A stretch of 64,000 nucleotides of DNA from Rhizophagus irregularis (lineage: Eukaryota > Glomeromycota > Glomeromycetes > Glomerales > Glomeraceae), in the NCBI RefSeq assembly GCF_026210795.1, contig NC_089452.1:930001-994000 (forward strand), read 5' to 3'. The translations under genes and the position numbers were made by a program. The notes below the pieces were generated by a model. It did not search any database, was not told the origin of the DNA, and saw only the letters and a list, made by a program, of their open reading frames with translations. This document shows positions 9,328 through 60,639 of the stretch, one piece after another; position 1 is the stretch's first letter, and every line of letters begins with the position of its first letter.

Positions 9328-11898
9328 TAGGGATTGGAATCGATTAATCGAAAATCGACAAAACATAGTAAAATCGATTCTCGAGAATCGATTCTCAGCA
9401 ATTTTTAAAACACTAAAAGATTTGTTAGTTGCCGATCGTACTAAAATAGAAAAGCTTGATTTGAAATGTATTTATATAATCAGCAAATCAATACCAAAGA
9501 TGGGGGATCAGCATCTTAAAATGGAAATCACTCAAAAACTAATCTTATGTTAACGTTAAGTTAACGTTAACCTATCATGACATGTCAATCATTTCAAGTC
9601 ATAACAATAACGTGACGAGCCACCCACCCACCCATAGGGTGATATTGCACTTATATAGAATGATCTTTCTTGCTTAAAAATTATGGGATAAAATTTTTAG
9701 CAAATCATGTGAAAACTGAATAATTTTTTTGTTAGCCAAAAATGATCAACAACCGGATGACAAATTTTAATATTATGTAAATAAACAATTTGTTTGTATT
9801 ACTTATTTAAATATAGATACATTTTTTTTTTTATTTTGAACCAAAAAATAAACAATAATCAAATGGTAAATTTTCATTATCGTCGTCATTACATTATCGT
9901 TATAATTAAAGTTCCCTGCCGAAATTAGGGAGTTTCGGCATGTCAAAATTGTCAAACCTATTTTGACATGTCAAAATTGTCGAAACCTAAAAATATTACA
10001 TTTCACGTAATAACTCGGCGTCCAATGATCATAGAAAGATGCACCATAGCTCGTTGGAATCGTCTCATAACGACGAGTCGAATGGTGGCTAAATCGTCTT
10101 TCTACGATCACTGGATGCCGAGATATTAAGCGAAACGTCAAAAATCGGCATTTTGTATTTTGCGATACTGCGCCATTTGACGTTTCACTTAATAACTCGG
10201 CATCCAATGATCGTAGAAAGATGCACCATAGCTCGTTGGAATCGTCTCATAACGACGAGTCGAATGGTTGCTAAATCGTCTTTCTACGATCACTGGATGC
10301 CGAGATATTGAGCGAAACGTCAAAAATCGGCATTTTGTATTTTGCGCTACTGCGCCATTTGACGTTTCGTCTATTATCTCGGCATCCAATGATCGTAGAA
10401 AGATGATTTAACCACCATTCGACTCGTCGTTATGAGACTAATCCAACGAGCTATGGTGCATCTTTCTACGATCATTGGATGCCGAGTTATTAAGTGAAAC
10501 GTCAAATGGCGCAGTATCGCAAAATACAAAATGCTGATTTTTGACGTTTCGCTCAATATCTCGGCATCCAGTGATCGTAGAAAGACGATCTAACCACTGT
10601 TCGACTCGTCGTTATGAGACGATTCCAACGAGCTATGGTGCATCTTTCTACGATCATTGGACGCCGAGTTATTACGTGAAACGTAATATTTTTAGGTTTC
10701 GACAATTTTGACATGTCGAAACTATTTCGGCATTTCGGCATTTCTACAGGTTTTAGTTTCGACATTTCGACAATAGCCTGTAGAGTTTTGGCAGGCAACT
10801 TTAGTTATAATGCTATCATGAAAATTTTTTCAGGGTAGTAATTCTAAAAATGATTAACAATCAGATAATAAGATTGTTGTTTTATTATAATGTTATCATA
10901 AAAATTTTTTTTTCTCAACAATTGGATAATAAAATTAAATAAATGTTATATCAAGTAATTTTTTATTTTGAAACAAAACAATAAACAACAACTAAATGGT
11001 AAAATTTCATTATCATTGTCTTATTATTATGATATTCAGTTATCATAATTTTCCAGAACTAAAAATGATCAACAATCGGATAGTAGAATTGTTTTATTAC
11101 AATATAATCATGAAAAATTTTTTTCCAGAGCCGTAATTCCAAAAATGATGATAGTAAATATTAAATAAATGCTTTATCAAGTAATAAACAATCTTTCTGT
11201 ATTGTTATTTAAAGTTAATCACATATTCTGATATATATATTTTTTTATTTTTAAACCAAAAAATAAACAACAATCAAGATAATTAACCTTAAAATGATTA
11301 ACAAGTGAAATAACTAAGCCAAAAATGATTAACAAGCAAAATAAACCGAAAATGATCATCCTTTACCAAATGAGAAAAAAATTATGTTAATAGCTAGTTA
11401 AGAGTAATTTCTCATTTTTTTTTATAGATATGTTAAATATAATCAAAAATTTTGCAAATAAAGTGAAGTTATGGTTTGGCTAGAAAAGCCCGGCGAGCGA
11501 AGCGAGCCAAATGAAATTGCATCATCATAATAAATCACATGAATATTTAATACACAATCACATGATCTACCAGTAATTTTTCCACCAGTTAAAATTTAGA
11601 AATTCTCTTTAAATCTTAAAAACTATTTATCATAATAATTATGATACTGTATAGTAGTATAAACCAACTTAATTAAAAAAAAAGTCAGAATTATTACAGT
11701 TCTAATTATACTATGACTATAGCTCCCTGCCATGTTTAATGTTAACTTGTTTACATATAAGTTAACCTGACTTCAAAGTAATTTTTCATGCCGGCCAAGT
11801 GCTGATTATTTTTGCTGAAATTAGAAACTGATTCAAAGTCAGGTTGGTCGTCTATAAGAAAAATCTTGAAAAGATTCGATTTTCGATTCCAATCCCTT
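9328..11898. mobile_element. hAT-type element, 2.6 kb, non-autonomous (family C, copy 1)
   Basis: The left end TAGGGATTGGAATCGAT and right end (reverse complement AAGGGATTGGAATCGA) form terminal inverted repeats. They are flanked by the 8-bp duplication AAACAAAT (9320-9327 and 11899-11906). The same termini border the 442-bp element at 22482-22923. The interior holds the inverted-repeat satellite at 9900-10810 and degenerate direct repeats of an AATGATCAACAATC-type motif around 9680-9860, 10840-11030, 11040-11180 and 11280-11360. No transposase frame is visible. One mismatch in the terminal base of the right end is the weak point. Confidence 0.78.
9900..10810. repeat. Large inverted repeat made of a 180-bp satellite unit
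   Basis: Four copies of a unit containing CTCGGCATCCAATGATCG lie as two direct (about 10013-10130 and 10195-10315) and two inverted copies (about 10378-10490 and 10557-10670), centred near 10375. The outer ends, TTATAATTAAAGTT and its near complement, are also inverted. Similar-looking open frames on the minus strand across it merely repeat the satellite and are not genes. The transcript would fold into a long hairpin. Confidence 0.85.
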
Positions 11899-11906
11899 AA
11901 ACAAAT

Positions 11907-13185
11907 GTGATACAGGTACGGTGGGTTGTGGGTACTAGGTACCGTTGGTACAAATTGAATTGTACCTGCAACGATCTTGTTAACAGTAACCACATCTGCA
12001 TTATACCTGTACCATTTAAATAATTCTAGGTATCTTGTCTATACTCCTTTGAGTAATAAAATAAAATAAAACAAATATTCCATTAACAACCAAGGAACCA
12101 CGATAATAATTTCAATAATTACTGTAGATAATTGTTACTAGTAGTAAAAGGCAACCTGGCCTAATAATCATTATAATCATTAAATATAGTACTTATACTT
12201 TGATTTATAACTAACAAACAAAAATGTAGATGGTCATGTACCACAAATAAACCTTTACAAATTACAAAATGTATAAATACTTTTTTGAAAAAAAATTAAG
12301 CCATAGCTCACATTAATTTAATCACACAGTACATATTTCTTGCAGATTGTTTAATCAAAATTACATTTATATTATTAATTAATTACGTGAAGAAAAAAAT
12401 AATGACTTTTCATTAGAAATTCAAGAAGCTTATTCAAATTTTGACATTCAGTTATACGATATTCAAATCTGACATTTGATAATGTTGGTTGCTATTTAGG
12501 GATGAGAAAGCTCATTCAGCTCTGTTTATCAAAAAATTACAGGTTGATAGATCAAGTTAGTTTATGATTATGATATCGATCCTATTTTGAGTTAGGTTCA
12601 GTAAGATTATTAAGTTGACTTTTAATTTGCATAAATTCAATAATTTACTAGTAAATTAGGTATTATAAACAATACGTGAGATGTAATTGGTAGGATACTT
12701 TATAGGGTTACATTTTTCTGTATAGTTATAATGATAAATAATAGTTTTTCACGTTAAGATTTTTATTATAAAAAAAGTTAGATACAATAAATATATATAC
12801 TTATAATAATAAAATACTATTTAACATCATCCACATTTCTTCCTATTTGATCAACGGTCCATATTGATCGATTTAAAAAAAGAAAGATATATACCGTTAA
12901 AAAACCTGATTTTAAAACAGTAAAAATTTTGAGGAACAACTAAATAAAGAAAATACAAAAAAGGCAGTATATAAGTTGACTATAGAAAGGCACTAATTTT
13001 TCGTTTAGATAATATTTATATGATAAATTTCAGAATAATTATAATTCTTGTTTAAGATTTTTCTAAAGGTCTATGAGAAGCCAATAAACTAGAATTTAAA
13101 CATTTTTCGTCCAGTTCAATCATTCATAATAACATTAATTTGTAAGTCAGATTCTACATAATGGATTAAAATTTAATTAATATTA
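11907..13185. other. No gene seen
   Basis: AT-rich flank downstream of the kinase gene on the minus strand. The short minus-strand frame at 11751-11993 crosses the end of the hAT-type element and is not supported as a gene. Confidence 0.5.
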
Positions 13186-14744
13186 TTACACATTTTGAAT
13201 ATTTAAAAATAAATTAATACCCGAGTATTCAGAATAATCTTTGCTTTTTACGTTATCATCAATTTTCAATTGAGAAATATCGATTTGTAAGGATTCTATT
13301 TAAAAAATTCTGTTAAAAATCTTTTCACAATTAATTTGAATATTTTATTTATCAATCATATACCTGAAGATTCCATGCTTATTATATTATCATTTTCTTC
13401 ATAATAATCATCAGAATTTTTTGGTTCGGGAAGATTATTATAATTAAGTAATCTACTTGAATAAGAAGCACCTGAATGTGATTTATATGATAATCCTAAA
13501 CTAGTTGAAGGTATATTACTCATCGATAAATTATTATTTGCTTTTTCTGATTCTTCAATTTGTATTTGTAATTCTGTAGTCTGACTATCATTTCGCTTAT
13601 CATACCACTCGCGCAAAATTTTATAAAGTTCATTTGCTGTTGGCCGATTTAATGGATTTGCATCCAAGCATCTTTTAATTAAATGCACAATCAATTGAGG
13701 CACTTTAATATCAAATATTGGTCTAAGTCCTTGACAAATTCTTATTGCTAAATTTTCATCATGCCCTATGTTATAATATGGAGGTAATCCAGAAATTACT
13801 TCGTACATAATTATACCAAAACTATAAATATCAGCAGCAGTAGTATAACTTTGTCCTTGTAAATTTTCAGGAGCCATATAAGGTAAATTGCCATATATAC
13901 TGTTTTTTGAAATTTCTGATGTATTGTAATTAGCAGGTCTACATAATCCCATATCACTTATATAAATACGTGTTTGACTCTTATAAAGTATATTTCCGAT
14001 ATGAAAATCTCGATGAATCAATCCATTTTTATGGAAAAGATTAAGTCCATATGCAATAATCCATAAACAATTAATCTTATCATACCAATTTAATTGCCTA
14101 TAACTCTCATCTAAAAACTTTCGTAAACTTCCATTTTCTGCAAAATTCATTACCATTATATAATTTTTTGTTTTTGGATCTTGAGTTATTCCATAAAATT
14201 TAATAACAGAATTTAAAAGATCATTTACTTTATAATGCAATGTAATCTACAAATAAATAAAATACATTATTAAAAGTAAAATTTTATAAATTTACAAATC
14301 ACTTAATTATAGTACCTCATTCATGAATTCCAATGTAACATTCTCTGAATTATTTAATCTTTTCAGGGCCACATATTTATATTGATCTTTTCTTCTCCAA
14401 TTTTGTTTTTCACTATCCCAATACCAAATATAACCATCAAGCCAAGTTGCTCTAAAGATTTCACCAAACCCACCTTTAGCAATATATTTAATATCATAAA
14501 ATCTATCATAAGATATCCATTCAACTGCCTTTGATACTTCATAATCAGAATGTATTGATAACTGAGTATTTTGAATGAATTTATCTATATCATGATTACC
14601 ACTGGTCCAATTTTTAAAATTTCGTTGAAAATATTTTGCAATACATATAAAATTACAATTCTCACATATGTTGCTCAAAACCAATAAATAAGTCTTGGTT
14701 TCTGGATCCTGAGTTATTCCATAAAATTCATATTCTCTTTTAAT
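13186..14744 (-). CDS. Protein kinase, 3'-most N-lobe unit plus full catalytic domain
   Basis: Three exons in frame: 14744-14316 (N-lobe unit 8), 14246-13364 and 13295-13186, with GT-AG introns between. The first exon has the WTSGNxDIDKFI signature, a glycine loop GGFGEI and the lysine motif VALK. The second has HRDF with the downstream Asn (HRDFHIGN), SDMG in place of DFG, MAPE and the DIYSFG motif. The third adds 36 residues after an Asp/Ser-rich tail. The family is the tyrosine-kinase-like kinases abundant in glomeromycotan fungi, presumed Ser/Thr or Tyr protein kinases. The exon at 14744 has no Met of its own before the kinase signature and is joined in phase 0 to upstream N-lobe exons, so the true start probably lies upstream. 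Unit 8 is the only N-lobe copy with an intact glycine loop. Confidence 0.75.
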
Positions 14745-14813
14745 CTACAAATGTAATACTAAATAAGATAAAAAAAAATATTTGTAATTTTGTTAATAAT
14801 AAGCTTATCATAC

Positions 14814-15230
14814 CTTATTTGCAAATTCTAATATATTTTCTGGAGTATTAAAACCCTTCAAATTCACAGCCATATTATGATCTTTTTTCCAATTTTTATT
14901 TTTATTATCCCAACTACTTATATTCCCATCAATCCAAATTGCTTTATACACATTGCCAAACTTATCATTTGCAATATATTTGACATCATTAAATTTGCCA
15001 TATGAAATCCATTCTAGTACTTTATCTGTATTTTTGTGAGCTAATAACTGAGTATCTTGAATAAATTTGTCAATATCATCATTACCACTAGTCCAATCTT
15101 TAAATTTATATTGAAATTGTATTACATAACATGCATAATTACATTTTTTGCAAATATTATTCAAAACTAGCATATAACTTTTTGTTTCTGGATTTTGAGT
15201 TATTCCGTAAAATTTATGTTGTTCTTTAAT
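14814..15230 (-). CDS. Kinase N-lobe exon, tandem unit 7
   Basis: A 139-codon exon bounded by an AG acceptor (just upstream of 15230) and a GT donor (just below 14814), both in phase 0. It opens with the exon-2-type segment FYGITQNPETK and then continues into a zinc-ribbon-like CKKC and the WTSGNDDIDKFIQ signature. The glycine loop has decayed to NDKFGNV, while the Lys in the NLKGF position remains. An independent start at the internal Met is possible but would lack a promoter of its own. Confidence 0.6.
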
Positions 15231-15299
15231 CTACAAATGTAATGCTAGTAAGAGAAAATAAAAATATTTATAATTTTGTTAATAAGTTTATTATTATAC

Positions 15300-15698
15300 C
15301 TTATTTGTAAATTCTAATGTAAGATTTTCTAGAGTATTTAAACTCTTCAACTTCACAATCATATTACAACGTTGTCTTTTCCAATTTTGAATTTTATCCC
15401 AATAATTTATATATCCATCAATCCAATTAGCTCTATATATTTCACCAAACTTATCTTTTGTAATATCTTTAATATCATGTAATCTGTCATAAGGTATCCA
15501 TTCTAATGCTTCCTTTGTATTATTAGAATGCTGAGTATCTTGAATAAATTTGTCAATATCATCATTACCACTAGTCCAATCTTTAAATTTATATTGGAAT
15601 TGTATTGCGTAACATGCATAATTACATGTTTTGCATATCAAAACCATCATATAATTTTTTGTTTCTGGATTTTGAGTTATTCCACAGGGCTTATTTAT
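15300..15698 (-). CDS. Kinase N-lobe exon, tandem unit 6
   Basis: A 133-codon phase 0-0 exon between consensus splice sites. It begins with a changed lead segment (INKPCGITQ instead of EFYGITQ) shared with unit 5, so units 5 and 6 derive from a common recent copy. The loop reads KDKFGEI and the lysine lies in VKLKSL. It is slightly shorter than the other units because of small deletions before the EWIPYDR motif. Confidence 0.6.
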
Positions 15699-15765
15699 CT
15701 ATAAATACAAATATATTGGTAAAAATTAAAACAACTAAAATTTTATTAAATGACAATTATTATAC

Positions 15766-16176
15766 CTCATTTGTAAATTCTATTGTAATATTTTCCAAAT
15801 TATTTAAACTTTTCAGAATTATATCTTTATTTCCATCTCTCATCCAATATTGATCTTCATTATCCCAATTATTTATTTTTCCATATATCCAATTTGCTTC
15901 AATATATACTTGTGTTTCTGCAATATATTTGATATCATCAAATTTGTCATAAGGTAACCATTCTAGTATCTTATTTATACTATTGTGAGCTAATAGTTGA
16001 GTATTTTGAATAAATTTATCAATATCATCATTACCACTAGTCCAATCTATGAATTTACGTTGAAAATGTATTGAATAACATGCATATTTGCATTTTTTGC
16101 ATATATTATTATTATTCAAAACCATCATATAATTTTTTGTTTCTGGATTTTGAGTTATTCCACAGGGCTTATTTAT
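15766..16176 (-). CDS. Kinase N-lobe exon, tandem unit 5
   Basis: A 137-codon phase 0-0 exon with intact acceptor and donor. The lead segment is INKPCGITQ. The glycine loop is deleted and replaced by AETQVYIEANW, a change shared only with unit 4. The Lys in IILKSL is kept. ATP binding in the usual way is unlikely, so this unit may act, if at all, as a structural or binding module. Confidence 0.6.
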
Positions 16177-16244
16177 CTATAAATACAAATCATATATTAG
16201 CAAAATTAAAGCAACTAAATTTTATTAAATGACAATTATTATAC

Positions 16245-16649
16245 CTCATTTGTAAATTCTATTGTAATATTTTCCAAATTATTTAAACTTTTCAGAATTA
16301 TATCTTTGTTTTCATCTCTTATCCAATTTTGATTTTCATTATCCCAATTATTTATTTTTCCATCAATCCAATTCGCTTCAATATATACTTGTGTTTCTGC
16401 AATATATTTGATATTATCAAATTTGTCATAAGGTATCCATTCTAGTACCTCATCTGTATTGTTGTGAGCTAATAATTGAATAACTTGAATAAATTTATCA
16501 ATATTATCATTACCACTAGTCCAGTCTATGAATTTATGTTGAAAATGTATTGCATAACATACATAATTACATTTTTTGCATATATTATTCAAAACCATCA
16601 TATAATTTTTTGTTTCTGGATTTTGAGTTATTCCACAGAGTTTATTGGT
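16245..16649 (-). CDS. Kinase N-lobe exon, tandem unit 4
   Basis: A 135-codon phase 0-0 exon with intact splice consensus. It shares the loop replacement AETQVYIEANW with unit 5. From this unit down to the stop at 13186 all exon junctions are in phase 0, so units 4-8 plus the kinase exons form one continuous frame of about 1,017 codons. No obvious initiator precedes it. Confidence 0.6.
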
Positions 16650-16724
16650 CTATAAACATAAATATATTAGTAAAAATTAAGCCTTACAATTTACAAAGTA
16701 TTACTAATAATAAAATTATTATAC

Positions 16725-17134
16725 CTGTTATTTGTAAATTCCATTGTAATACTTTTTAAATTGTTTAAACTTTTCAGAATTACATCTTTATTTCCATCCC
16801 TTATCCAATTTTGACTTTTATCACTCCAATATTTTATATATCCATCAATCCAATTAGCCCTATATTCATCTTTTGTAATATGTTTAATATCATACAATCT
16901 GTCATAAGGTATCCATTCTAATACTTCATCTGTATTGTTGTGAGTTAATAACTGAGTATTTTGAATAAATTTGTCAATATCATCATTACCACTAGTCCAA
17001 CCTATGAAATTACGTCGAAAATATGTTAAATTACAAATATGATCACATTTTTCACATATATAATCCAAAACTATCATATAAAATTTTGTTTTTGGATCCT
17101 GAGTTATTCCATAAAATTTATGGCTTTTTATAAT
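16725..17134 (-). CDS. Kinase N-lobe exon, tandem unit 3, donor shifted
   Basis: Similar to the neighbouring units but the exon end reads AATAACAG before GT, where others have AATGAG or AATAAG. The exon is therefore 410 bases (phase 2) and splicing into unit 4 would give a stop within eight codons. The loop region is also shortened (TKDEYRANW). This unit interrupts the long frame, unless it is skipped; skipping would keep the frame because all other units are multiples of three. Confidence 0.55.
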
Positions 17135-17203
17135 CTATAAATTAAAAATATATTAGAAAATAAACATTTATAAATTTTGTTAAATAATAACTGAAGCTTA
17201 TAC

Positions 17204-17611
17204 CTTATTTACAAATTCTAATGGAGTATTTAAACTCTTCAAATTGACAATTATATTATGATTTCTTTTCCAATTTTTATTTTTATTATCCCAGTTAATT
17301 ATATTTCCATTAATCCAAATTGCTTCATACACTTTGCCAAACTTATTCTCTGCAATATATTCAATGTTGCATAATTTATCATAATGTATCCATTCTAGTG
17401 CTTCTTCTGTGTTATAATGAGCTGATAGCTGAGTATCTTGAATAAATTTATCAATTATATTATTATCACTGGTCCAATTTTCAAAATTTTGATAAAAGTG
17501 CGTTGCATTACATATTTTGTTACACTCTTTACATTTATTGTTAACAACCATCATATAATTTTTTGTTTTTGGATCCTGTGTTATTCCATAAAATTCGTGG
17601 TTAATTTTAAT
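17204..17611 (-). CDS. Kinase N-lobe exon, tandem unit 2
   Basis: A 136-codon phase 0-0 exon with good splice sites. The lead is IKINHEFYGITQDPKTK. The block from there through the EALEW motif is almost identical to unit 1, after which the two diverge, a mosaic that suggests gene conversion or recent unequal crossing-over. The loop reads ENKFGKV. Confidence 0.6.
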
Positions 17612-17676
17612 CTATAAATACAAATGTAATAATACATTAGTAAAAATTAAAATATTTATCAAATAATTTTATTTAC

Positions 17677-18099
17677 CTTATTTATAAATTCTAACGTAAG
17701 TTTTTTTGGAATATTTAAATTCTTCAAATTCACAAACATATTATGACCTTCTCTTTCCCAATTTTGATTTTTATCATCCCAATAATTTATATATCCATTA
17801 ATCCAATTAGCTCTATATACTTCGCCAAACTCATCTGTTACAATATATTTAATATCATCAAATTTGTCATAAGGTATCCATTCTAGTGCTTCTTCTGTGT
17901 TATAATGAGCTGATAGCTGAGTATCTTGAATAAATTTATCAATTATATTATTATCACTGGTCCAATTTTCAAAATTTTGATAAAAGTGCGTTGCATTACA
18001 TATTTTGTTACACTCTTTACATTTATTGTTAACAGCCATCATATAATTTTTTGTTTTTGGATCCTGAGTTATTCCATAAAATTCGTGGTTAATTTTAAT
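17677..18099 (-). CDS. Kinase N-lobe exon, tandem unit 1
   Basis: A 141-codon phase 0-0 exon, the most upstream complete unit. The loop reads TDEFGEV and the lysine motif VNLKNL. The 3' part and following intron closely match the truncated unit 0. There is no upstream start exon left because the array is cut at 18211. Confidence 0.6.
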
Positions 18100-18168
18100 C
18101 TATAATATAAATACAAATGTAATAATGTATTAGTAAAAATTAAAAATTTATCAAATAATTTTATTTAC

Positions 18169-18211
18169 CTTATTTGTAAATTCTAATGTAAGTTTTTTTG
18201 GAATATTTAAA
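18169..18211 (-). pseudogene. Kinase N-lobe exon, tandem unit 0, truncated
   Basis: Only the last 43 bases of the exon remain, with its GT donor. Similarity to unit 1 stops abruptly at 18211, where unrelated sequence begins. This is the broken 5' edge of the array. Confidence 0.8.
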
Positions 18212-19240
18212 CTGATGGCTTAATTAGCCCAATAAAATCCTTGAGAAAATAAACTCGGATTAATGGGATAATTATAAAAAATCTGTGCGAGGTTAAAAAG
18301 CAGAAAGAAAATAGATATTGTTTCAGCCCCTGAGGCTATAAATAGAAAATGTAAATCACGTTATGCTTGTCACGTGACTTTCATTAAGAAATCACATATA
18401 TCATTTGTAATGCCAGATGGATTTGTTTGAATACCAATTGAATTAATTATACATCCAGCCTATTTATAGAGCTGGTCCTCACAAATTTTGAGCTCTTCTA
18501 TAACAAAAATTCCACAGTGAAACTCTCTTGCTGGCTTGGTCACGTGCTCAACAAGACGATCTACCTCTTTTGGATTACCATGCATATTTTGATAAACATT
18601 GGCTTGAGATTGAACCAATACATTTGCATGCAACTGTTATAGGATTTCCATTTAGGAAAAATTTATACAAAGAACAGAACCTTCCAGAAATTTTCTGCAA
18701 ACAGACCCGCAAACATCAGAAACTTTTCCAAGATGACTTTAACACTTTACGACACTGGCTTCGACAACTCCTTTTGAGACGATCCAACCTAGAATCTAAC
18801 TACAACCCCACCATGAGTCACTTGTTAAACATTGTTGGCTCGCAGAATACTCACTCTTTCTGTTCCCTGCGTTCCTCTTTTATTTCGTGGTGCTAGTTAG
18901 TGGGCTGTGTAATGCCCTTATATGTATTGTTAACTTCATAGAAGATAGAAATTTCTTTCAGCGTCTGGGTTTATTATGTAGAAGGCATTCTTTTTTTTCT
19001 TCTTTTTTTTCTTCCTTTTTTACTTTATTTTTCTTAATGTGACATTGCTGGCCATGCCTGGTTATTTACAATAACAGGCAAGGCAATCGCTTCTTCAGAG
19101 GTAGTTGGGTTTTCATACGCATAGTGGGTATAGTAGTTTTCCTTTTGTAAGGGCTCAGCCCTCAAGCTTGTAAGACTCCCGTCTTTGTCTACATTTTTAA
19201 AATAAGATGAAAAATAAAGTATCGTAAGATACCTAAATTA
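18212..19240 (+). other. Unrelated insertion or rearrangement beside the array, possibly retroelement
   Basis: Sequence of higher GC that begins exactly where kinase similarity ends. It has a pyrimidine-rich block at 18970-19030 and ends with AATAAAG at about 19216 in an A-rich context, which resembles the 3' tail of a transcript-derived element. It could be a 5'-truncated retroelement, but no reverse transcriptase motif is visible. Confidence 0.35.
18528..18896 (+). CDS. Hypothetical 122-aa open frame
   Basis: An open frame in the higher-GC block, starting at a CTC/ATG-poor region, so the initiator is doubtful. It is rich in His, Leu and Phe, with no motif I recognise. It may be the C-terminal remnant of an element-encoded protein rather than a host gene. 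Confidence 0.25.
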   Translation: MLAWSRAQQDDLPLLDYHAYFDKHWLEIEPIHLHATVIGFPFRKNLYKEQNLPEIFCKQTRKHQKLFQDDFNTLRHWLRQLLLRRSNLESNYNPTMSHLLNIVGSQNTHSFCSLRSSFISWC

Positions 19241-29603: not shown

Positions 29604-30887
29604 TCAGAACCCTTTTTTATATGAAGTTGAGATATTTGATATTTCTTTATCAGCTTCTTCAAATGCATCTTTAATCTCTTTTCCTTTGTAACTGAAACAT
29701 TCCTCTTCATCTTTTCTACCTCTAATAGAATCAAGCCAAAAATTAAATATATCAAATAATTCTTCAGCTGTTGGTCTTTCATTTGGATTTTCATTCATAC
29801 ATTTATAAGCTAATTCCTCATAAAATTCAGGAGTTCCTTTTCCAAATTCTGGTCTGAGTCCATTTATACATATGGCAAATATTAATCTTGAATCATAATT
29901 TTCATTGCAAAAAGGACGTCTTCCAGTTGATAATTCAGTCATAACTACTCCAAAACTATAAATATCAGATGATAATTCATATTGTGTACCACTTAAGACT
30001 TCTGGTGCAATATATGGCACTACTCCATAATATACACCATTATCTTTGCTTGATGGTCCACATAACCCAAAGTCTGAAATGAAAAATAAATTATGATCTT
30101 GTAAAATATTTTTACTATGAAATTGTCCATGAAAATATCCTAAACTATGAAAACTCTGCAGGTCATATGATAATTTATGCAATAAGTTAATTTTATTTTG
30201 CCAAAACATATCATTAAAATTTTTTGAAAGAATACTTCTCAAATTTCCTTTATCTGCAAATCGTATAATCATAATAAATTCACTAGTTTCTGGATCTTTG
30301 GTTAATCCATAAAAATCGAACCCGTATAACATACATACTTTCCAATGTATTTTAAGCTATATTTACAATAAAAATTTGAATATAAAATAAATTTAATGAC
30401 TCCTAATATATGAAATAAATAAATTAATATAAAAACGTACTTCACTTAAAAATTTGTTTTTTATATTCTGTGATCCAATTAACCTTTTCAAAGCAACTAC
30501 CATCATAGGTTCAAGGTTTACTTTTTTATAACTTCCATCATTATTTTTATAATATTCCGATTTACCATCAATCCAAGTTGCAGAATACACCTTGGAAAAA
30601 CTACCTTCATCAATTTCTTTTATATCTGTAAATCTATCTAATGTTACCCATTCAAGAAATGGATGTCTTATATATGTGAGATTTCTTGCATTATACATTG
30701 TATCCTTTACAAACTTATCAATATCAGGATTTCCGCTGGTCCAGCCTTCTATCATTCTAAATGGATCACATTCTTTACACCATAACTCTTCGGCTAAAGA
30801 CTTATTGCAATACGAACAATTTTTCTGATTATTAACTATATTGGTGTCTCCATCTGAAATATTTAATTTACTAACTTCGTTTTCCAT
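29604..30887 (-). CDS. Kinase-like protein with altered catalytic loop (putative pseudokinase)
   Basis: Two exons, 30887-30441 and 30356-29604, joined in phase 0 at a GTACG donor and a TATAG acceptor. Residues 24-40 hold a CxxC/CxxC zinc ribbon, then GWTSGNPDIDKFV (48-60), a weak loop DEGSFSKV (93-100) and VALK with Lys134. The catalytic loop reads FHGQFHSKN (224-232), so the HRD Asp is Gln227, while DFG (244-246) and the C-lobe motifs APE and DIYSFG are intact. Phosphotransfer is therefore doubtful; ATP binding may persist. The stop at 29604 comes from a run of six A before GGG: one base fewer would continue the frame to about 29561 in the way the paralogues do. The upstream motif at 31016-31036 is shared with two other kinase genes. 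Confidence 0.85.
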
Positions 30888-33874: not shown

Positions 33875-35347
33875 TTAATTAACCCTCTTACAAACCCATT
33901 CAAAATCTTCATATATATGACCATAAAATAAATTATCAAAATTTTTTACTATTTTTTTAGATTTATAAATTTCAATTAAATTAGTATATTCTTCTATATA
34001 ACCAATCTTATTAAATTGTAATAACATTGGATGTCTACCTTCCCAATTATCAAAAAATAATTTTAAAGTTTCTAATTTAAAAATTGTATCAGAATAAATA
34101 CTAAATTTAAATTTAAATAAACCAATTGGTGAAGAATTAGTTAATATTTCAAATAATTTTTCTAAATTAAATTCATCTTCAATATTATTAATAAGAATGA
34201 ATAAACCTTCTAAATATTGACAATTTATTAATAATTTTTCAAATTCTAAAATATTAATATTTCTTAATACTAATTTAAGATATTTAAGATTTGGACAATT
34301 ATTATAAATTGTTTGAATAATTCTTTCATTATTAATTTCATCATGAAATATATAATCAATTTTTATTTCATTAAGTTTTCCACTTGTATTTTCTATTAAA
34401 CTTGTTAAAATTTTAATTGGAACTCTACTAGCTTTTAATATACGTAAAAATGGTAAAGATAAATTTTCTAAACAATTCCATTCATAATAATAACTACAAT
34501 CCAATTCTAATTCTTTTAAATTTACGAATTTTGAAATGATATTTGTTATTGGTTCTTTTGTTGTCTTAAAATATTGTATAGTATTAGCATGATTAATTAA
34601 TGAATCTTCAAGTTTTTTACAAAATGATTCATGAGCTCTTGTATATCCATAAGTTCTAGAATATTCTGTATAATTAATTAAAAAACTAATACTTGATAAA
34701 TTATTTTGATTATTAATTAATTCAATAATACCATAATTATTATTATGTACTTCAATAAAAAGTTTCAATTCTTTAATTAATTTACATATTTCTTTTAAAC
34801 CAATTATTACATTATCGTTTATACTTGCACTACAACAAAAGAATTCAATATCTGAAAAACAAGTTTCAGATTTAGGTATAAGATGTATTTGATGTTCAAA
34901 TTGATAAGGTAAATAAAGATGTGTAAATTTCGTATTTTCATTAATAAAAAGTTCGAATAATTGATTTTTAATAATAAAAGTTTTAGATTGTTCATGAATA
35001 GAATTAATTAATTTATGAATTTCTTCTAAATTTAAATGTTTACATAAATTAATATAATTAAATAATAAAGGTTTTTGATATGAATTTGTTGTTAAAAAAT
35101 CAATACCTTGATCTTTTAAATTATTTTTTATTTCATTTGATAAATGTGAAATAATTATATTTAATAATAATTTTTTTTTTCGATGTTCACAATTTTTATT
35201 AATATATTTCCAAGGATTATTCCATAAAATTGGTATGATCATTTCACACCATGTTTTATTAACTGAAAGGCATGAATAAAGTGTTTTTTTATCATCTTTA
35301 ATTTCTTGAAATATTAAATAAAGTACGTCTCTGTTTAATCTAAACAT
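33875..35347 (-). CDS. F-box protein with LRR-like C-terminus
   Basis: A single-exon 490-codon gene. Residues 1-45 form an F-box (LNRDVLYLIFQEIKDD, then CLSVNKTWCEMIIPILW), the part that binds Skp1 in SCF ubiquitin ligases. The rest is an irregular leucine-rich substrate-recognition region with repeats such as CPNLKYLKLVLRN and CQYLEGLFIL. It is a full-length paralogue of the plus-strand gene at 36372, with which it forms a head-to-head pair 1 kb apart. F-box proteins of this build are strongly expanded in Rhizophagus; the target is unknown. The tail ends shortly after a WVCKR stretch; length and frame are intact. Confidence 0.92.
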   Translation of the reverse strand: MFRLNRDVLYLIFQEIKDDKKTLYSCLSVNKTWCEMIIPILWNNPWKYINKNCEHRKKKLLLNIIISHLSNEIKNNLKDQGIDFLTTNSYQKPLLFNYINLCKHLNLEEIHKLINSIHEQSKTFIIKNQLFELFINENTKFTHLYLPYQFEHQIHLIPKSETCFSDIEFFCCSASINDNVIIGLKEICKLIKELKLFIEVHNNNYGIIELINNQNNLSSISFLINYTEYSRTYGYTRAHESFCKKLEDSLINHANTIQYFKTTKEPITNIISKFVNLKELELDCSYYYEWNCLENLSLPFLRILKASRVPIKILTSLIENTSGKLNEIKIDYIFHDEINNERIIQTIYNNCPNLKYLKLVLRNINILEFEKLLINCQYLEGLFILINNIEDEFNLEKLFEILTNSSPIGLFKFKFSIYSDTIFKLETLKLFFDNWEGRHPMLLQFNKIGYIEEYTNLIEIYKSKKIVKNFDNLFYGHIYEDFEWVCKRVN

Positions 35348-36371
35348 TTTTTTTTCTTTTTTTCTTTTTTTTTAAAGAAAACCTTTTTGATGTACTCAAA
35401 ATTATAAATAATTATTTGTAATATGATATGATATTACGTTATACAAGCATATTTGATGCGACATTGTGACATAAATAAAAATGAAAGCAGAATCAATCGA
35501 CAAATTATAATGCCCAACCAAATCAATTGATTCAAATTATATACAGCGAACGTAAACAGTAAAAATTTTTACCAAAAAAAAAAAATTTATTAAAATATAA
35601 ATTATATATACTTATAAAACAATATACATATATACAAATTATATATACTGTACAATCTGTACATGTACAATAAAAAAAAATTTATTATTAAATTTTTTTT
35701 TTTTTTTTTTTTTTAACGGATCGATCCATGTTAAAAAGATTTTTTAGCCAAAAGTCCGAATGATCCGAGTAATAGTCCCTTAGTATTATCCATTATATAC
35801 ATAATACTAAATTTTCTTCCGTTGATTAGACCATTCATGTTACACAATTAATAGTTTCACAGATATGTATGTATATATTTTTAATTCATTCAAGGACATT
35901 CTAGACCCAATCTATGTGGATCTTCCGCGTTACACAATTACAATATATATTAGTCGTTACATAATTCTTTAATGCCGGATACCGTTTCACCCAAAAAAGC
36001 CATGCAGATCTTTTAGCCGGAATTATGAGGAGATGTCATTCGGAAATTTCCATCATTTAAGTTTCTATCATACGCTTTTTACGCCAAGAGATCGACGCCA
36101 AATTACCATAAAGAATTTGGACTCTAAAAAAAAAAAATTATTTATTATTATGATCAGTGACGTTTAAATTCAAAACAACATTGGTATCATAGATAAATAT
36201 AATGTGGTACGTAACAGGTAAACAAAAAAGGCCCTGCATAATCACGATATAATTAATATCATGCATCAAAAAAAATAAAAAATAAAAAATAAAAAAATAA
36301 AAATAAAAAAAATAAATAAAATAAATAAATAAATAAATAACGATAAAATAATTTTTTTTTTTTAATAAAAA
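35348..36371. promoter_or_regulatory. Shared intergenic region of the divergent F-box pair
   Basis: About 1 kb between two ATG codons pointing away from each other, so it must hold both promoters. It contains long A and T runs at both gene ends (35590-35720 and 36265-36362) and a repeated TTACACAATTA motif (35840 and 35932). No TATA box can be singled out in such AT-rich DNA. Confidence 0.5.
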
Positions 36372-37775
36372 ATGTCAAACCTAAATAATGACATTCTTTA
36401 TTTAATATTCGAAGAGTTACAAGACGATGATAATACTCTTTATTCATGTCTTTTAGTCAATAAAACTTGGTGCGAATCAACCGTTCCAATTTTATGGAAA
36501 GATCCTTGGAAACGTTTAAAGAATGGAAAGGAAAGATCCTTATTAAACGTGATTATTTCTCATTTATCAAAAGAATCCAGAAATAATTTAGGTCAACACT
36601 TTGATTTTTTGATAGAATCATATCAAAATTCTTTATTTAACTATATTAGTTTCTGTAGACATTTAAATTTAAATGAAATCCAAAGGATAATTGACGTTGA
36701 ACTTGTACAAGAAAAATCTTCAATATCAATTATTACAAGTGAAATAATCAACCTTTTTATTAACGGAAACGCAAATTATAAAACCCTTTATATACCTCAA
36801 CAACTTGATTGTCAAATACGTCTCATTCCTGGAACCGAAAGTTGTTTTTCAGAAATTGAATTCCTCAGTTGTCATACTAACATAAATAATAATATTTTAT
36901 TTGGATTAATAGAAACTTGCAAATCAATTAAACAATTAGAACTTATTATTGAAGGGAATGATAATAATTATGAAATCGTTAAATTAATCGAATCTGCAGG
37001 AAATTTATTTAAAATAAGTTTTATAAATAAGTGTTTGTATGTCAATGAATCATTTTGTAAAATTCTTGAAAATTCATTAATAAGACACGCAAATACTATA
37101 GAAAATTTTAAGATATCAACTAAACCACTTGTTACAAAAGTTCTTTCATCTTTTGCTAATTTAAAAAGATTAGAATTGGATAATTCATACGAAAATCTTC
37201 CTTGGAATTGTTTAAATTATTCATCTTTACCTTGTTTACAATTTTTATATGCTAAGGGCGTTCCAATTTGTGCTTTAACAAGTTTAATTGCAAGTACAAG
37301 TGGTCAACTCATTGAAATAAAAATCGATCATATACCTCATGAAGAGATTGATAATAAGAGAATTATTCAAGCAATTTATCAGAAATGTCCTAATCTTAGA
37401 TATCTTAAATTAATGTTAAGAAATAGAAATATTCTTGAATTAAAAAATTTATTAGTTAATTGTAGAAATTTAAGTGGTTTATTTATTATTAGTAATATGG
37501 TAGATACGTTTGGTTGGGATAATTTATTTGAAATATTAACTGAAACATCACCAACAAGTTTATTTAGATTTAAATTCAGTTTTTGTTATAAACCAATTAA
37601 ATTAGAATTTTTGAAATTTTTCTTTGATAATTGGAAAGATCGACATTCTTTAGTATTACAACTCAGTCGATTAGATAATATAGGTAATATAGGTGATTTA
37701 ATAGAAAAATATAAAGCGGATGGAATAATTAAAAAATGTAATGAAGTATGTGGTGGAGATTTTGAATGGATTTAA
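36372..37775 (+). CDS. F-box protein with LRR-like C-terminus
   Basis: A single-exon 467-codon gene with an N-terminal F-box (LNNDILYLIFEELQDD, then CLLVNKTWCESTVPILW). A long leucine-rich region follows, containing CPNLRYLKLMLRN and CRNLSGLFII. It aligns with the minus-strand F-box gene over its whole length, including the DNWKDRH motif near the C-terminus, so the pair arose by inverted duplication of one gene. Likely role: substrate adaptor of an SCF ubiquitin ligase; the substrate is unknown. There is no sign of decay. Confidence 0.92.
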   Translation: MSNLNNDILYLIFEELQDDDNTLYSCLLVNKTWCESTVPILWKDPWKRLKNGKERSLLNVIISHLSKESRNNLGQHFDFLIESYQNSLFNYISFCRHLNLNEIQRIIDVELVQEKSSISIITSEIINLFINGNANYKTLYIPQQLDCQIRLIPGTESCFSEIEFLSCHTNINNNILFGLIETCKSIKQLELIIEGNDNNYEIVKLIESAGNLFKISFINKCLYVNESFCKILENSLIRHANTIENFKISTKPLVTKVLSSFANLKRLELDNSYENLPWNCLNYSSLPCLQFLYAKGVPICALTSLIASTSGQLIEIKIDHIPHEEIDNKRIIQAIYQKCPNLRYLKLMLRNRNILELKNLLVNCRNLSGLFIISNMVDTFGWDNLFEILTETSPTSLFRFKFSFCYKPIKLEFLKFFFDNWKDRHSLVLQLSRLDNIGNIGDLIEKYKADGIIKKCNEVCGGDFEWI

Positions 37776-42086: not shown

Positions 42087-45000
42087 ATGGCTCAGAGTAC
42101 TAATGATAGGGGTAAAAAGAATATAGTAAAACAAATTGGCAATATAGTAAAACTAGTATCAAGTAAAATCAAGAAATCTAAAGGTAAATATAATATATTA
42201 AAACAAACTGAAATAAAAAATTTATATTTAATGTTTTCATGGATAACTGAAATAAATAATATTCAAAGCTCACAAAGATAGTGCTGATGATGATCATAAT
42301 GATGAACAAAGTTTGGGTAACTATAATTTTTTATAAATTTTGAATAACTTTAAATCTTTTTAATATCTTCATAGATAATTGGAAAATTTTGAAATAAACT
42401 GAATAACTTCTTTATATTTTAATTTGTATGAAGATCCTTCAACTCACAAAGTTGTCTCAAAAAGTTTTGGAAATGCTGATATTTATTATGATGAACAAGA
42501 TTTGGGTAATTATAACTTTGGAAAATTTAGATAGCTTTTAATTTAATATTTTCATGGATAACTGAAATAAATAATATTCAGATGATTATCATAGTAATGA
42601 TGAACAAAGTTTTGGTAACTATAATTTTTTATAAAATTTTAAATAACTTTTCCTATTATTACATAATTGTATAATATTTGAATGTAATTTAAACTAACTA
42701 AATTCTTTATTTAAAAAATTATTTTGTAGATTGTAAGTTAAAAGTTATTTTTTGATTCTATTATTACATAATTGTATAATATTTGCATATAATTTAAACT
42801 AACTAAATTCTTTATTTAAAATTATTTTGTAATTTCTTTTAGTTGGTAAGTTATAAGTTATTTTTTTGATTCTATTATTACATATTCTATTATTACATAA
42901 TTGTATATAATTTAAACTAACTAAATTCTTTATTAAAATTATTTTGTAATTTCTTTAGGTGGTAAGTTATAAGTTATTTTTTGATTCTATTATTACATAT
43001 TCTATTATTACATAATTGTATAATGTTTGCATATAATTTAAACTAACTAAATTCTTTATTTAAAATTATTTCATAATATAGAGAGTAAGTTATTTTTTCA
43101 TTCTATTATTACATAATTGTATAATATTTACATATAATTTAAACTAACTAAATTCCTTATTTAAATTATTTCATAATATAGAGAGTAAGTTATTTTTTGA
43201 TTCTACTATACATAATTGTATAATATTTGCATATAATTTAAACTAACTAAATTGAAATTATTTTGTAATTTCTTTTAGGTTGTAAGTTATAAGTTGTTTT
43301 TGATTCTATTATTACATAATTGTATAATATTTACATATAATTTAAACTAACTAAATTCTTTATTAAAATTTATTTCATAATATAGCACGTAAGTGATTTT
43401 TTGATTCTATTATTACATAATTGTATAATATTTGCATATAATTTAAACTAACTAAATTCTTTATTTAAAATAATTTCATAATATAGGGAGTAAGTTATTT
43501 TTTTATTCTATTATTACATAATTGTATAATATTTGCATATAATTTAAACTAACGAATTCTTTATTTAAAAATTATTTTGTAATTTCTTTTAGGTTGTGAG
43601 TATCATTATATAATTGTATAATATTTGCATATAATTTAAACTAACAAATTCTTTATTTAAAAATTATTTTGTAATTTCTTTTAGTTCGTGAGTATCATTA
43701 CATAATTGTATAATATTTGTATATAATTTAAACTAACTAAATTCTTTATTTAAAATTATTTTGTAATTTCTTTTAGTTGGTAAGTTATAAGTTATTTTTG
43801 ATTCTATTATTACATAATTGTATAATATTTGCATATAATTTAAATTAATTAAATGCTTTATTTAAAATTATTTTGTAATTTCTTTTAGTTGGTAAGTTAT
43901 AAGTTATTTTTGATTCTATTATTACATAATTGTATAATATTTGAATATAATTAAAACTAACTAAATTCTTTATTTAAAATTATTTCATAATATAGAGGGT
44001 AAGTTATTTTTGATTCTATTATTACATAATTGTATAATATTTGCATATAATTTAAACTAACTAAATTCTTTATTTAAAATTATTTCATAATATAGATAGT
44101 AAGTTATTTTTTGATTCTATTATTACATAATTGTATAATATTTGCATATAATTTAAACTAACAAATTCTTTATTTAACAATTATTTTGTAATTTCTTTTA
44201 GTTCGTGAGTATCATTACATAATTATATAATATTTGAATATAATTTAAACTAACAAATTCTTTATTTAAAATTATTTTATAATATAGAGAGTAAGTTATT
44301 TTTTGATTCTATTACATAATTATTGTATAATATTTGCATGTAATTTAAACTAACTAAATTCTTTATTTAAAATTATTTTGTAATTTCTTTAGGTGGTAAG
44401 TTATAAGTTATTTTTTGATTCATTATTACATAATTGTATAATATTTGCATATAATTTAAATTAACTAAATTCTTTATTTAAAATTATTTTGTAATTTCTT
44501 TTAGTTGGTAAGTTATAAGTTATTTTTGATTCTATTATTACATAATTGTATAATATTTGCATATAATTAAAACTAACTAAATTCTTTATTTAAAATTATT
44601 TCATAATATAGAGGGTAAGTTATTTTTGGTTTTATTATTACATAATTGTATAATATTTGCATATAATTTAAACTAACTAAATTCTTTATTTAAAATTATT
44701 TCATAATATAGATAGTAAGTTATTTTTTGATTCTATTATTACATAATTGTATAATATTTGCATATAATTAAAACTAACTAAATTTTTTATTTATAATTAT
44801 TTTGTAATTTCTTTTAGTTGGTAAGTTATAAGTTATTTTTGATTCTATTATTACATAATTGTATAATATTTGCATATGATTTAAACTAACTAAATTCTTT
44901 ATTTATAAATTATTTCATAATATAGATCGTAAGTTATTTTTTGATTCTATTATTACATAATTGTATAATATTTGCATATAATTTAAACTAACTAAATTCT

Positions 45001-46949
45001 TTATTTAAAATTATTTCATAATTTATTCTATTATTATTACATAATTGTATAATATTTGCATATAATTTAAACTAACTAAATTCTTTATTTATAAATTATT
45101 TCATAATATAGCGAGTAAGTTATTTTTTGATTCTATTATTACATAATTGTATAATATTTGCATATGATTTAAACTAACTAAATTCTTTATTAAAACTTAT
45201 TTCATAATATAGCATGTAAGATATTTTTTAATTCTATTACATAACTTTTTATTTGCATGTAATTTAAACTAACAAATTCTTTATTTAATTAATTATTTTG
45301 TAATTTCTTTAGTTTGTAAGTTATAGTTATTCCTATTATTATAATATTGCATATATCATTTATATCATAACTAAATTCTTTATTTAAAAATTTGATTTAC
45401 TTTAGATTCTTGTAAGTTATTCTTTATCATAACATTTGTGTAATATTTTAATTAATTAAATTCTTTATTAAAAATTTTAATTATTTTAGATTCTTGTAAG
45501 TTATTTTTTTATTATTACATTTATGTAGTATCAATTTAAAGTTTTAATTAATTAAATTCTTTTTTAAAAATATTTATGTTTTAGTTGGTAAGTTATAAAT
45601 TATAGGTTTTTATATATATTTAATAAATACTAAGATTTTTTATTTTATTGTATTCCTAATTAAAATTAGAGTAAGTATTAAATTGTTTTTTTAATTTTAA
45701 AATTTGAAATAATTTTATTATAATTTTTAATTTATTATATTATAGATTTGGAAAAAGTGGAAATACAATTTTAGATAAATTTATTTCTAAAAGAAGATTA
45801 AAATGGATTCCTTATGATAAATTTGCAAATGTTGTATATCTTGATAAAGGAGGGTTTAGTACTATATATAAAGCTATTTGGTTAAATATGAATCAAGATA
45901 AAGAAGTAGTTCTTAAACGCCTCAATAATTTGAATGAAAATTTAGATGAATTTTTAAATGAAGTATGATAATCAAAATTATTTTTTTTTTTAATTTTATT
46001 TATTTATTTATACTAATTGCATATTTCAATTTTACTTTTATAGTGGAAATATCATCAAAGTTGTGCAGATTCACATGATATTATTAATTTATATGGATTT
46101 ACAAAAAGTTCAGATACTTTGAATTATATGGTAGTAATGGATTATGCAAATAAAGGTAATTTAAGAGGAAATTTAGTTAAAATAACCAAATATAATTGGA
46201 AACAAAAACTAAATATGTTGTACAAAATTATTTCTGGGCTTTATGAAATACATAAACAAGATCTTATTCACTGTGATTTACATGATGGCAATATTTTAAA
46301 TCACAGCAATAAAAAGGATGAAGAGGAGGAAGAAAATGAAGTTGATAATAATTTAGTTTTTGTTAGTGATTTAGGATTATGTCAACCTATAAAATCATCT
46401 TTAAAAAAAGGTGAAATTTACGGAGTTATACCATTTATGGCACCTGAAATTTTGAGAGGCAAACCTTATACTCAGGCTAGTGATATATATAGTTTTTCTA
46501 TGATTATGTGGGAATTTACATCTGGAGTTTCACCATTTAATGATAGAACACATGATCTTCAACTTAGTTTAAGTATTTGTAAAGGCGAACGTCCTAAAAT
46601 TATTGAAAATATTCCAAAATGTTATATGGAGTTGATGAAAAAATGTTGGAATGAGGATCCATTAAAAAGGCCATCTGTATCAGAAGTGAAATATATTATT
46701 GGAAATTGGATTTTTCAGCCTTTTAGTAATGACATTAATGAAGAATTGGAAAATAGCAAAATGGAATTTATAAATGCACAAATTGGGTATAACAATCTTA
46801 CTACTGAATGTCATCCACAAGCATGTTATACAAGTCGTCTGCTTAATTTTACTAGTAAAAAATTGAATGAAATGCTTGAAAGTGAAGATTCACAAAGTTA
46901 TTTTTCTACTGGTATTACTGAAGACTTGAATGAATATTTAATTATATGA
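42087..46949 (+). CDS. Protein kinase with N-terminal charged exons and a giant modular intron region
   Basis: Supported exons: 42087-42183, 42269-42316, 42434-42505 and 42582-42614, all joined in phase 1, then after the array 45746-45962 and 46044-46949. The N-terminus is basic, followed by Asp-rich repeats (DDHNDEQSLG and DDYHSNDEQSFG). The kinase part has KGGFSTI, VVLKRL, HCDLHDGN (46269-46292), SDLG, MAPE and DIYSFS. HRD is HCD, so it is a non-RD kinase with the catalytic Asp kept. An acidic insert EEEEE lies between the catalytic loop and SDLG. Direct joining of exon 42614 to 45746 is out of frame; joining through the 3-base gaps of the array plus the 1-base gap at 45670 is in frame (about 487 aa). 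Alternatively the kinase starts from another promoter and 42087-42614 is a separate gene. Confidence 0.65.
42615..45745 (+). repeat. Tandem array of intron-like modules with 3-base exon-like gaps
   Basis: About 28 modules of roughly 80-115 bp. Each has GTAAGT (or GTGAGT), a conserved body (ACATAATTGTATAATATTTG, then TTTAAACTAACTAAATTC) and an acceptor of one of two kinds, TTTCTTTTAG or TCATAATATAG. Between one acceptor and the next donor lie exactly 3 bases in 26 cases (first at 42730-42732, last at 45585-45587), 6 bases in two cases (45405-45410 and 45490-45495) and 1 base at 45670. The conserved CTAAC resembles a branch point, about 30-50 bases before the AG. A module near 45000-45040 lacks the splice pair. 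A sub-block of several modules is repeated at about 43890-44095 and 44510-44713. Confidence 0.93.
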
Positions 46950-51280: not shown

Positions 51281-51422
51281 AAAAAAAATCTAAAAATTAT
51301 GAAATAAATTATTTTCAAAGAAAAACATTTCGTTCTAAAATATTTCGCTCTAAAAAAAATTTTTTCGTTCAAAAAAAAAAAAAAAAAAAAAAAAATTTTA
51401 TTTAAGTCTCGAAGATAAACAA

Positions 51423-60513: not shown

Positions 60514-60639
60514 AATCAGCCAATGATCGGAATAATTTCTATTTTTGGTTGTCTTATTCTTTCTTTAGTAACTTATTTAAGAATACCTACGTAAGTATAC
60601 GAAGACAAAAAAAAATTTTTGTAAATCGAAATTAACTCA

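What the first reader, a model, noticed from the sequence alone, without database searches (positions are those of the whole stretch)
14316..18211. Tandem amplification of a chimeric kinase N-lobe exon
Seen: eight complete exons, each starting with the beginning of kinase exon 2 (FYGITQDPETK) fused to kinase exon 1 (CxxC, WTSGN). All but one are in phase 0-0 with intact splice sites and similar introns. Units 4-8 plus the kinase are one open frame of about 1,017 codons. Known: symmetrical exons can be duplicated without frame loss. Inference: the locus could make a multi-N-lobe protein, a family of splice forms, or act as a reservoir for gene conversion. Glycine loops are decayed in all but unit 8, so any retained role is unlikely to be catalysis.
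Basis: partly seen in the sequence, partly recalled or inferred. Interest (0 to 1): 0.86.

Follow-up and report, generated by a model that had tools for sequence, protein, structure and literature searches.

The report
Kinase half-domain exon arrays in fungi
A mycorrhizal fungus carries many genes in which the front half of a protein kinase has been copied several to a dozen or more times in a row ahead of one kinase, with all but the last copy stripped of catalytic residues yet otherwise preserved; the copy in this window is a damaged member of that family.

Summary
In detail: on the minus strand, eight complete chimeric exons (399-429 nt, introns 65-75 nt, seven of eight phase 0-0), the tail of a ninth, then a kinase C-lobe exon; U4-U8 plus kinase give 1017 codons. 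But it is not one odd locus. Two searches of the same genome (Rhizophagus irregularis) give at least 240 such exons in 76 clusters on 16 of 32 contigs. Six other arrays repeat the plan. Annotated proteins of three Rhizophagus species carry up to 19 units; a deeper subfamily reaches Glomus cerebriforme. Only the last unit keeps the loop glycine and the VAxK alanine (13/13 each; internal 6/91 and 0/91), while CxxCx3C and WTS stay near-invariant. Exon lengths are multiples of three in 55/56; introns are not. Best reading: TKL kinases with strings of pseudo-N-lobes, each completed at a splice junction. The window copy lacks a first exon and has a frameshift in U3, so it is probably truncated or decaying. 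Transcription and function are untested.

The parts
18169..18213 (-). tail (15 codons) of a ninth chimeric unit, U0; the array is cut off here
   Evidence: SLNIPKKLTLEFTNK, 42/45 nt identical to U1 tail; donor at 18168
17677..18099 (-). chimeric exon U1, 423 nt, phase 0-0, pseudo-N-lobe unit
17204..17611 (-). chimeric exon U2, 408 nt, phase 0-0
   Evidence: preceding intron and first part of exon 97-100% identical to U1
16725..17134 (-). chimeric exon U3, 410 nt, breaks the frame at its donor
   Evidence: in frame in the A1-isolate protein P0002
16245..16649 (-). chimeric exon U4, 405 nt, phase 0-0
15766..16176 (-). chimeric exon U5, 411 nt, phase 0-0
15300..15698 (-). chimeric exon U6, 399 nt, phase 0-0
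14814..15230 (-). chimeric exon U7, 417 nt, phase 0-0
14316..14744 (-). chimeric exon U8, 429 nt, terminal unit with GGFG loop, VALK and alpha-C Glu; would pair with the C-lobe
13364..14246 (-). kinase exon: rest of alpha-C, beta4-beta5, C-lobe (HRDFHIGN, DMG, APE)
   Evidence: PF07714 E=4.5e-40 for 13356-14246; the open frame runs to a stop ending at 13356 if the 3' intron is not removed
13186..13295 (-). possible short 3' exon (ESLQIDISQLKI.. ending NIQNV, stop at 13188-13186)
   Evidence: a similar C-terminal sequence (ESLQIDISQLKI) in P0071
18214..18900 (.). dispersed repeat abutting the cut 5' end of the array
   Evidence: 13 matches in the genome including itself, the 12 others 66-84% identical over parts

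Best explanation
The locus is a damaged member of a genome-wide family of TKL-type kinase genes of Glomeromycotina built as: first exon (Met, CxxCx3C, WTS, beta1-beta3) + n chimeric exons (beta4-beta5, CxxCx3C, WTS, beta1-beta3) + C-lobe exon. DNA level: an old tandem duplication of the stretch from exon 1 body to exon 2 head made a symmetric phase 0-0 exon (inferred from the exon's make-up); arrays then grow, shrink and exchange pieces by unequal crossing over or gene conversion without losing frame. The intron lies inside helix alpha-C, so every splice junction joins beta1-beta3 of one exon to beta4-beta5 of the next and completes one N-lobe (supported by sequence and a model). Protein level (inferred): constitutive splicing yields a chain of N-lobes with one C-lobe; only the last N-lobe is catalytic and pairs with the C-lobe. 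The upstream ones are pseudo-N-lobes kept for a non-catalytic job, most likely binding partners or regulating the kinase, with a conserved zinc-knuckle/WTS core and variable positions. In this window the 5' end is lost and U3 is frameshifted, so at best U4-U8 plus kinase could be made, from an unknown start.
Against: No RNA was examined: splicing across units rests on splice signals and on public gene models. Omega is only moderately below neutral for internal units, and 21 of 66 independent closest pairs are not below 1, so part of the sequence is weakly constrained. Mean within-array divergence in exons is only a little below that of introns (codon positions 0.183/0.125/0.170 v 0.210; 112 of 167 pairs have positions 1+2 below the intron). 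The simulated stop rate uses intron base composition and is an upper estimate. In the P0104-like set the VAxK Ala is retained in 329/826 inner units, so that part of the rule is weaker there. One of the six fetched arrays (L041) has a frame break in its C-lobe exon, so not every array now encodes an intact kinase. Structure models have mean pLDDT 75 and 71, pTM 0.42 and 0.52. Zinc binding and any partner are inferred from motif alone.
Confidence: 0.66

Rival explanations
1. Splice-form generator: because every unit is a 0-0 cassette, the arrays serve to make families of proteins with different numbers or choices of N-lobes by alternative splicing, including one-unit kinases.
For: Nearly all junctions are frame-compatible (55/56 exons), and any exon can in principle join any later one and still complete an N-lobe.
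Against: Public gene models join units consecutively; constitutive splicing explains the same phase pattern. I did not compare splice-site strengths.
Confidence: 0.14
2. Donor reservoir: internal units are not needed as protein but persist as templates that convert or recombine into the terminal, working unit.
For: Patchy identity between units (U1/U2), different unit make-up in isolate A1, nearest neighbour in the same array for 64%.
Against: Terminal units resemble terminal units of OTHER arrays (nearest neighbour is a terminal in 9/13, in the same array in only 2/13) and none of 13 carries the internal VAxK change, so little flows into them. Open frames, exact exon lengths and splice sites would not be needed in a silent store.
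Confidence: 0.06
3. Neutral expansion: tandem duplication in an AT-rich, repeat-rich genome, with no function of the extra units, tolerated because the frame is kept.
For: Moderate omega; variable unit number; this window copy is truncated and frameshifted.
Against: Near-invariant CxxCx3C, WTS and EW in internal units together with a consistent loss of catalytic residues across arrays and species; few stops; 55/56 exon lengths in frame.
Confidence: 0.1
4. This copy is still a working gene: U4-U8 plus kinase are transcribed from a cryptic or repeat-derived promoter at the cut 5' end.
For: 1017 open codons with intact splice sites and kinase motifs; related proteins in other isolates join units to the C-lobe (P0002, P0071).
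Against: No first exon found, U3 frameshift, dispersed repeat at the break, no near-identical annotated protein among the 120 best.
Confidence: 0.2

Closest known systems
TKL/TK protein kinases (Pfam PF07714; IRAK, RIPK type)
   Same: C-lobe exon matches PF07714 at 4.5e-40; among the 60 listed chains for an alignment of relatives are JAK, EGFR, EPH, IRAK4 and RIPK1, matched over the kinase end; internal units take the N-lobe fold in a model.
   Different: Many extra N-lobes without C-lobes upstream; DMG in place of the usual DFG; a Cys-rich knuckle and WTS segment between the copies.
Pseudokinase-kinase tandems such as JAK JH2-JH1 (structural hits 7t6f, 4oli)
   Same: A catalytically altered kinase module sits N-terminal to a kinase in one chain and may regulate it (works like).
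   Different: JAK carries one complete two-lobed pseudokinase (recalled); here strings of N-lobe-only units occur, up to 19, with no C-lobe between them.
Expanded kinase repertoire of Rhizophagus irregularis (2,533 members, Manley et al. 2023, PMC10234402, passages read; PF07714 as most frequent motif, Maeda et al. 2018, PMC6123716, passages read)
   Same: The window family belongs to this expansion.
   Different: The passages I read count kinase genes and families; none mentions repeated N-lobe exons. Pfam finds only the terminal kinase, so counts by Pfam miss the inner units.
Arrays of duplicated cassette exons (Dscam type, recalled)
   Same: Tandem symmetric exons with conserved splice sites.
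   Different: In Dscam exons are mutually exclusive (recalled); public models here join them in series. Not testable without RNA.
Fungal repeat-bearing recognition genes with concerted evolution (HNWD/NLR type, recalled)
   Same: Repeats most alike within an array, unit make-up different between isolates, conserved core with variable positions.
   Different: No NACHT domain found; the repeat is a kinase N-lobe, not WD40, ankyrin or TPR.

Membership tests
Protein kinase superfamily, PF07714 | Pfam match over curated cut-off and catalytic motifs in the C-lobe | tested here: met
   138 bits against cut-off 23.1 for 13356-14246; HRDFHIGN, DMG, APE read in the translation
Protein kinase superfamily, PF07714 | Catalytic N-lobe (glycine loop, VAxK, alpha-C Glu) adjoining the C-lobe | tested here: met
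   U8: IAKGGFG, VALK, FMNE; terminal units 13/13
Pseudokinase (internal units) | Kinase fold with loss of catalytic residues | tested here: met
Pseudokinase-kinase tandem (JAK type) | Complete two-lobed pseudokinase N-terminal to the kinase | tested here: not met
   Units repeat every ~140 codons with beta4-beta5 followed directly by the next CxxC; no C-lobe between units
Dscam-type mutually exclusive exons | Only one exon of the array per transcript | not testable with these tools
   No RNA data; public gene models join units in series
Fungal NLR/HNWD recognition genes | NACHT or NB-ARC domain with the repeats | tested here: not met
   Pfam at E<=0.01 lists kinase domains plus scattered unrelated families, no NACHT or NB-ARC, in P0110 and P0160
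Zinc-binding domain | Bound zinc at CxxCx3C | not testable with these tools
   Cysteines 90-91 of 91 in internal units; no zinc family listed for three units scanned

The most novel reading that the evidence does not exclude
Arbuscular mycorrhizal fungi have evolved a recognition-receptor-like kinase system in which strings of up to about 19 pseudo-N-lobes, continually reshuffled by exon-unit exchange and keeping a constant zinc-knuckle/WTS scaffold with variable surface positions, act as multivalent sensors wired to a single catalytic kinase: a recombining repertoire comparable in logic to repeat-based immune or allorecognition genes, made from half of a kinase domain.
Probability: 0.15. Interest if true: 0.93.

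Novelty: new variant of a known kind. Interest (0 to 1): 0.72.

Why it matters
Tandem repetition of only the N-lobe of a kinase, with the exon cut out of register so that splicing completes each lobe, is an architecture that none of nine literature searches listed, judged by titles and abstract starts. Pfam sees only the terminal kinase, so Pfam-based counts of the large AM-fungal kinase expansion miss this feature. It gives testable predictions on how half-domains are regulated, how exon phase lets arrays evolve, and what the unusually large signalling repertoire of plant symbionts does.

Tried and rejected
Rejected: 'single local oddity' (searches show many arrays). Rejected: 'inner units are random decay' for the family, though the window copy itself is damaged. 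Left open: diversifying selection at variable positions. A Fitch count gave 1131 synonymous and 3787 nonsynonymous steps over 138 columns, with strongly uneven sites, but exchange between units invalidates a simple tree, so I claim no positive selection. Tree: terminal units do not form one supported clade (best pure clade 5 of 13, support 0.845). Rfam on 13000-19000: no match. Pfam on three single units: nothing over cut-off. A full census was not possible: each protein search lists at most 150 rows, so counts are lower bounds; single exons that are part of no array may also be in the 76 clusters (26 clusters hold one hit). The window's own spliced protein was not modelled; relatives P0089 and P0110 were. 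Kwon et al. 2019 on pseudokinase evolution is not held (seen only as a reference-list entry in PMC10234402), so overlap with it could not be checked. Other papers: passages only (PMC10234402, PMC6123716, PMC8401276, PMC8647823, PMC10252856).

Rows dropped and flaws in the counts: 15 hits had no acceptor or donor found and were left out; most are cut by locus ends or are the window U3, but L035 434-779 (profile 1-115 only), L037 967-1384 and L036 2983-3406 (no in-frame donor found), L023 474-897 and L049 523-934 (no in-frame acceptor found) may be broken exons. On re-check one first exon proved to be counted twice (L032/L038), so the 133 exons are 132 and the 16 first exons 15; the same-array share is inflated by at most two rows. 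The automatic end-finder cut window U2 nine bases short (399 instead of 408 nt); other ends may be off likewise. Thirteen exons whose downstream sequence was too short to classify were left out of the internal/terminal comparison; the terminal exons of L039 and L043 fall outside the 13 and, read by eye, also carry GGFG and VALK. Exons were found as open frames of 60 or more codons, so the '0 stops in 133' is by construction. In one search gap cells and last units without a C-lobe behind them are not counted, and the P0104-like set was drawn by search (P0121-P0231 plus nine named), so it holds some window-like proteins such as P0160 and P0186.
Full report
WHAT IS THERE. The window is contig C24 930001-994000 of a 146.7 Mb, 32-contig genome. 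The length of contig C10 (5,258,217) equals that of the contig carrying Rhizophagus irregularis protein OCT59_002235 (P0191), and a unit of that protein is found on C10 at 100%, so the genome is R. irregularis; its size and contig number are close to the assembly of Manley et al. 2023 (146,773,001 bp, 32 scaffolds; PMC10234402, passages). On the minus strand, eight complete exons of 399-429 nt are separated by GT-AG introns of 65-75 nt, and seven of the eight are 0-0. U3 is 410 nt and shifts the frame. U4-U8, the kinase exon and a short 3' exon give exactly 1017 codons. A 45-nt tail of a ninth unit ends at 18213; beyond it lies a dispersed repeat with 13 matches in the genome, itself included. 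No further unit exon or first exon of this gene was found upstream in the window; the next hit of the unit profile on that strand belongs to another kinase at 30447-30821.

IT IS A FAMILY, NOT A LOCUS. Two searches of the same genome with different units, each capped at 150 rows, give together 240 distinct exons in 76 clusters (50 with two or more) on 16 contigs, 39 clusters of them on C2; 114 of 164 neighbouring spacings lie between 440 and 580 nt. Stops occur in 1 of 150 rows and 3 of 150 rows. Six fetched arrays contain 5, 6, 7, 8, 13 and 9 chimeric exons with complete boundaries (L039-L044 in order), followed by a C-lobe exon. In five of the six the first exon, with a Met upstream of the first CxxC, is also in the stretch (L042 is cut by its end). 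Of the 56 chimeric exons in the seven arrays, 55 are in frame, the exception being the window's U3. On re-check the C-lobe exon of L041 has a frame break of its own, while those of the other five are open.

IN OTHER SPECIES. With the spliced U4-U8 region as query, 317 proteins match, and the 120 listed are of R. irregularis, R. clarus and R. diaphanus where a species name shows; all 120 contain two or more units, first exon's included (the search takes only proteins of 0.55-1.75 times the query's length). A second, more distant subfamily (query P0104, 292 proteins, 120 listed) has the same plan and includes three proteins of Glomus cerebriforme with 6, 7 and 6 units. Of seven Diversispora epigaea proteins examined, one (P0293) has two units and six have one. 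The longest, P0160 of R. clarus (3061 aa), has 19 units. In the genome itself a locus of the second subfamily shows the same 0-0 chimeric exons (L050; two other loci fetched with it gave no exons in that script, which read one strand only).

SELECTION. In 133 exons (132 distinct), terminal units (13) always keep the second loop glycine, the VAxK alanine and lysine, and the alpha-C glutamate. Internal units (91) keep them in 6, 0, 80 and 30 cases, and first exons (16 rows) in 1, 0, 14 and 6 cases. In internal units the three cysteines are kept in 90-91 of 91, WTS W in 90 and EW W in 90. The same pattern holds in annotated window-like proteins (G2 80/81 v 25/245; VAxK Ala 74/79 v 6/348). In the P0104-like set the glycine rule holds (66/66 v 49/762), the alanine rule is weaker (60/63 v 329/826) and the cysteines and WTS are less constant (Cys1 434/491, W 659/805 in inner units). 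NG86 omega medians are 0.615 internal, 0.694 first exon and 0.376 terminal, against 0.79-1.31 for neutral simulations. Against this, 21 of 66 independent closest pairs do not lie below 1, and exon divergence within arrays is only a little below that of introns. Introns are GT/AG in 49/49 and hold a CTAA branch-like motif in 40/49 against 7.6 in shuffles. I read this as a frame kept by selection with a rigid core and loosely constrained positions, neither chance nor simple decay.

HOW ARRAYS CHANGE. The nearest relative of an exon lies in the same array in 64% of cases against 5% after permuting labels (one first exon was counted twice, which adds at most two rows); terminal units instead have a terminal unit as nearest in 9/13, and a member of the same array in only 2/13. 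U1 and U2 are 97-100% identical over about 300 alignment columns and then 70-92%. The isolate-A1 protein P0002, whose C-lobe part is 98.7% identical over 78 residues, has U3 in frame, three U4-like units, one unit best matched by U7 whose head reads like U6, and U8; it is partial and from an 11-kb contig, so the difference may in part be assembly or gene-model error. All this fits unequal crossing over or gene conversion within arrays.

THE WINDOW COPY. Without a first exon, with a frameshift in U3 and a repeat at its 5' edge, and with no near-identical protein among the 120 best of two searches (proteins under about 240 aa or over about 1780 aa were not candidates), this copy is probably truncated or decaying. 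Its C-lobe and terminal unit remain intact.

MECHANISM. Shown: exon plan, phase, splice signals, loss of catalytic residues upstream of an intact terminal unit, conserved Cys/WTS core, patchy identity between units. Inferred: the units are spliced in series into one protein; the terminal N-lobe and the C-lobe form the kinase; the upstream pseudo-N-lobes bind or regulate. Not shown: any transcript, protein, zinc, partner or phenotype.

NOVELTY. Kinase expansion in this fungus is known (2,533 kinases, PMC10234402, passages; PF07714 as most frequent motif, PMC6123716, passages; kinases among high-copy gene classes, PMC8647823, passages). None of the passages read mentions repeated N-lobe exons, and nine literature searches listed no paper on them, judged by titles and abstract starts. 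The library lacks most subscription papers, among them Kwon et al. 2019. I therefore call it a new variant of a known kind: pseudokinase modules in front of a kinase, but as N-lobes only and in long recombining strings.

Noticed in passing
window 30896-29604 (-), 51354-52772 (+), 60625-61961 (+), 46044-46949 (+): Further kinases of the same superfamily; the first three show the plain two-exon plan (first exon with CxxC..CxxC and WTSGN, then C-lobe exon) that the chimeric exon appears to derive from.
   Followed up: partly
L041 (C14:1143001-1151000), C-lobe exon from about 6400: The C-lobe exon of this seven-unit array is split over two frames, while all its units are open.
   Followed up: no
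window 42999-45298: Minisatellite of about 20 copies of a ~101-bp unit upstream of the kinase at 46044-46949.
   Followed up: no
window 9961-10721: Long inverted repeat: arms of 364 nt, 95% complementary, 33 nt apart, built of 182-bp repeats.
   Followed up: no
window 18214-18900: Dispersed repeat (13 places, the others 66-84% identical) with a 130-codon open frame (18504-18896) that matches no Pfam family at E<=0.01, at the cut end of the array.
   Followed up: partly
window 33875-35371 (-) and 36369-37775 (+): Two similar-looking proteins of 498 and 468 codons in opposite orientation; one has a weak F-box-like match below the curated cut-off.
   Followed up: no
window 56907-59819 (-): 970-codon open frame with TPR repeats.
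   Followed up: no
P0160, P0186, P0121, P0122: R. clarus and R. irregularis proteins of 2533-3061 aa with 17-19 units; the first two score as window-like, the other two as the distant subfamily.
   Followed up: partly
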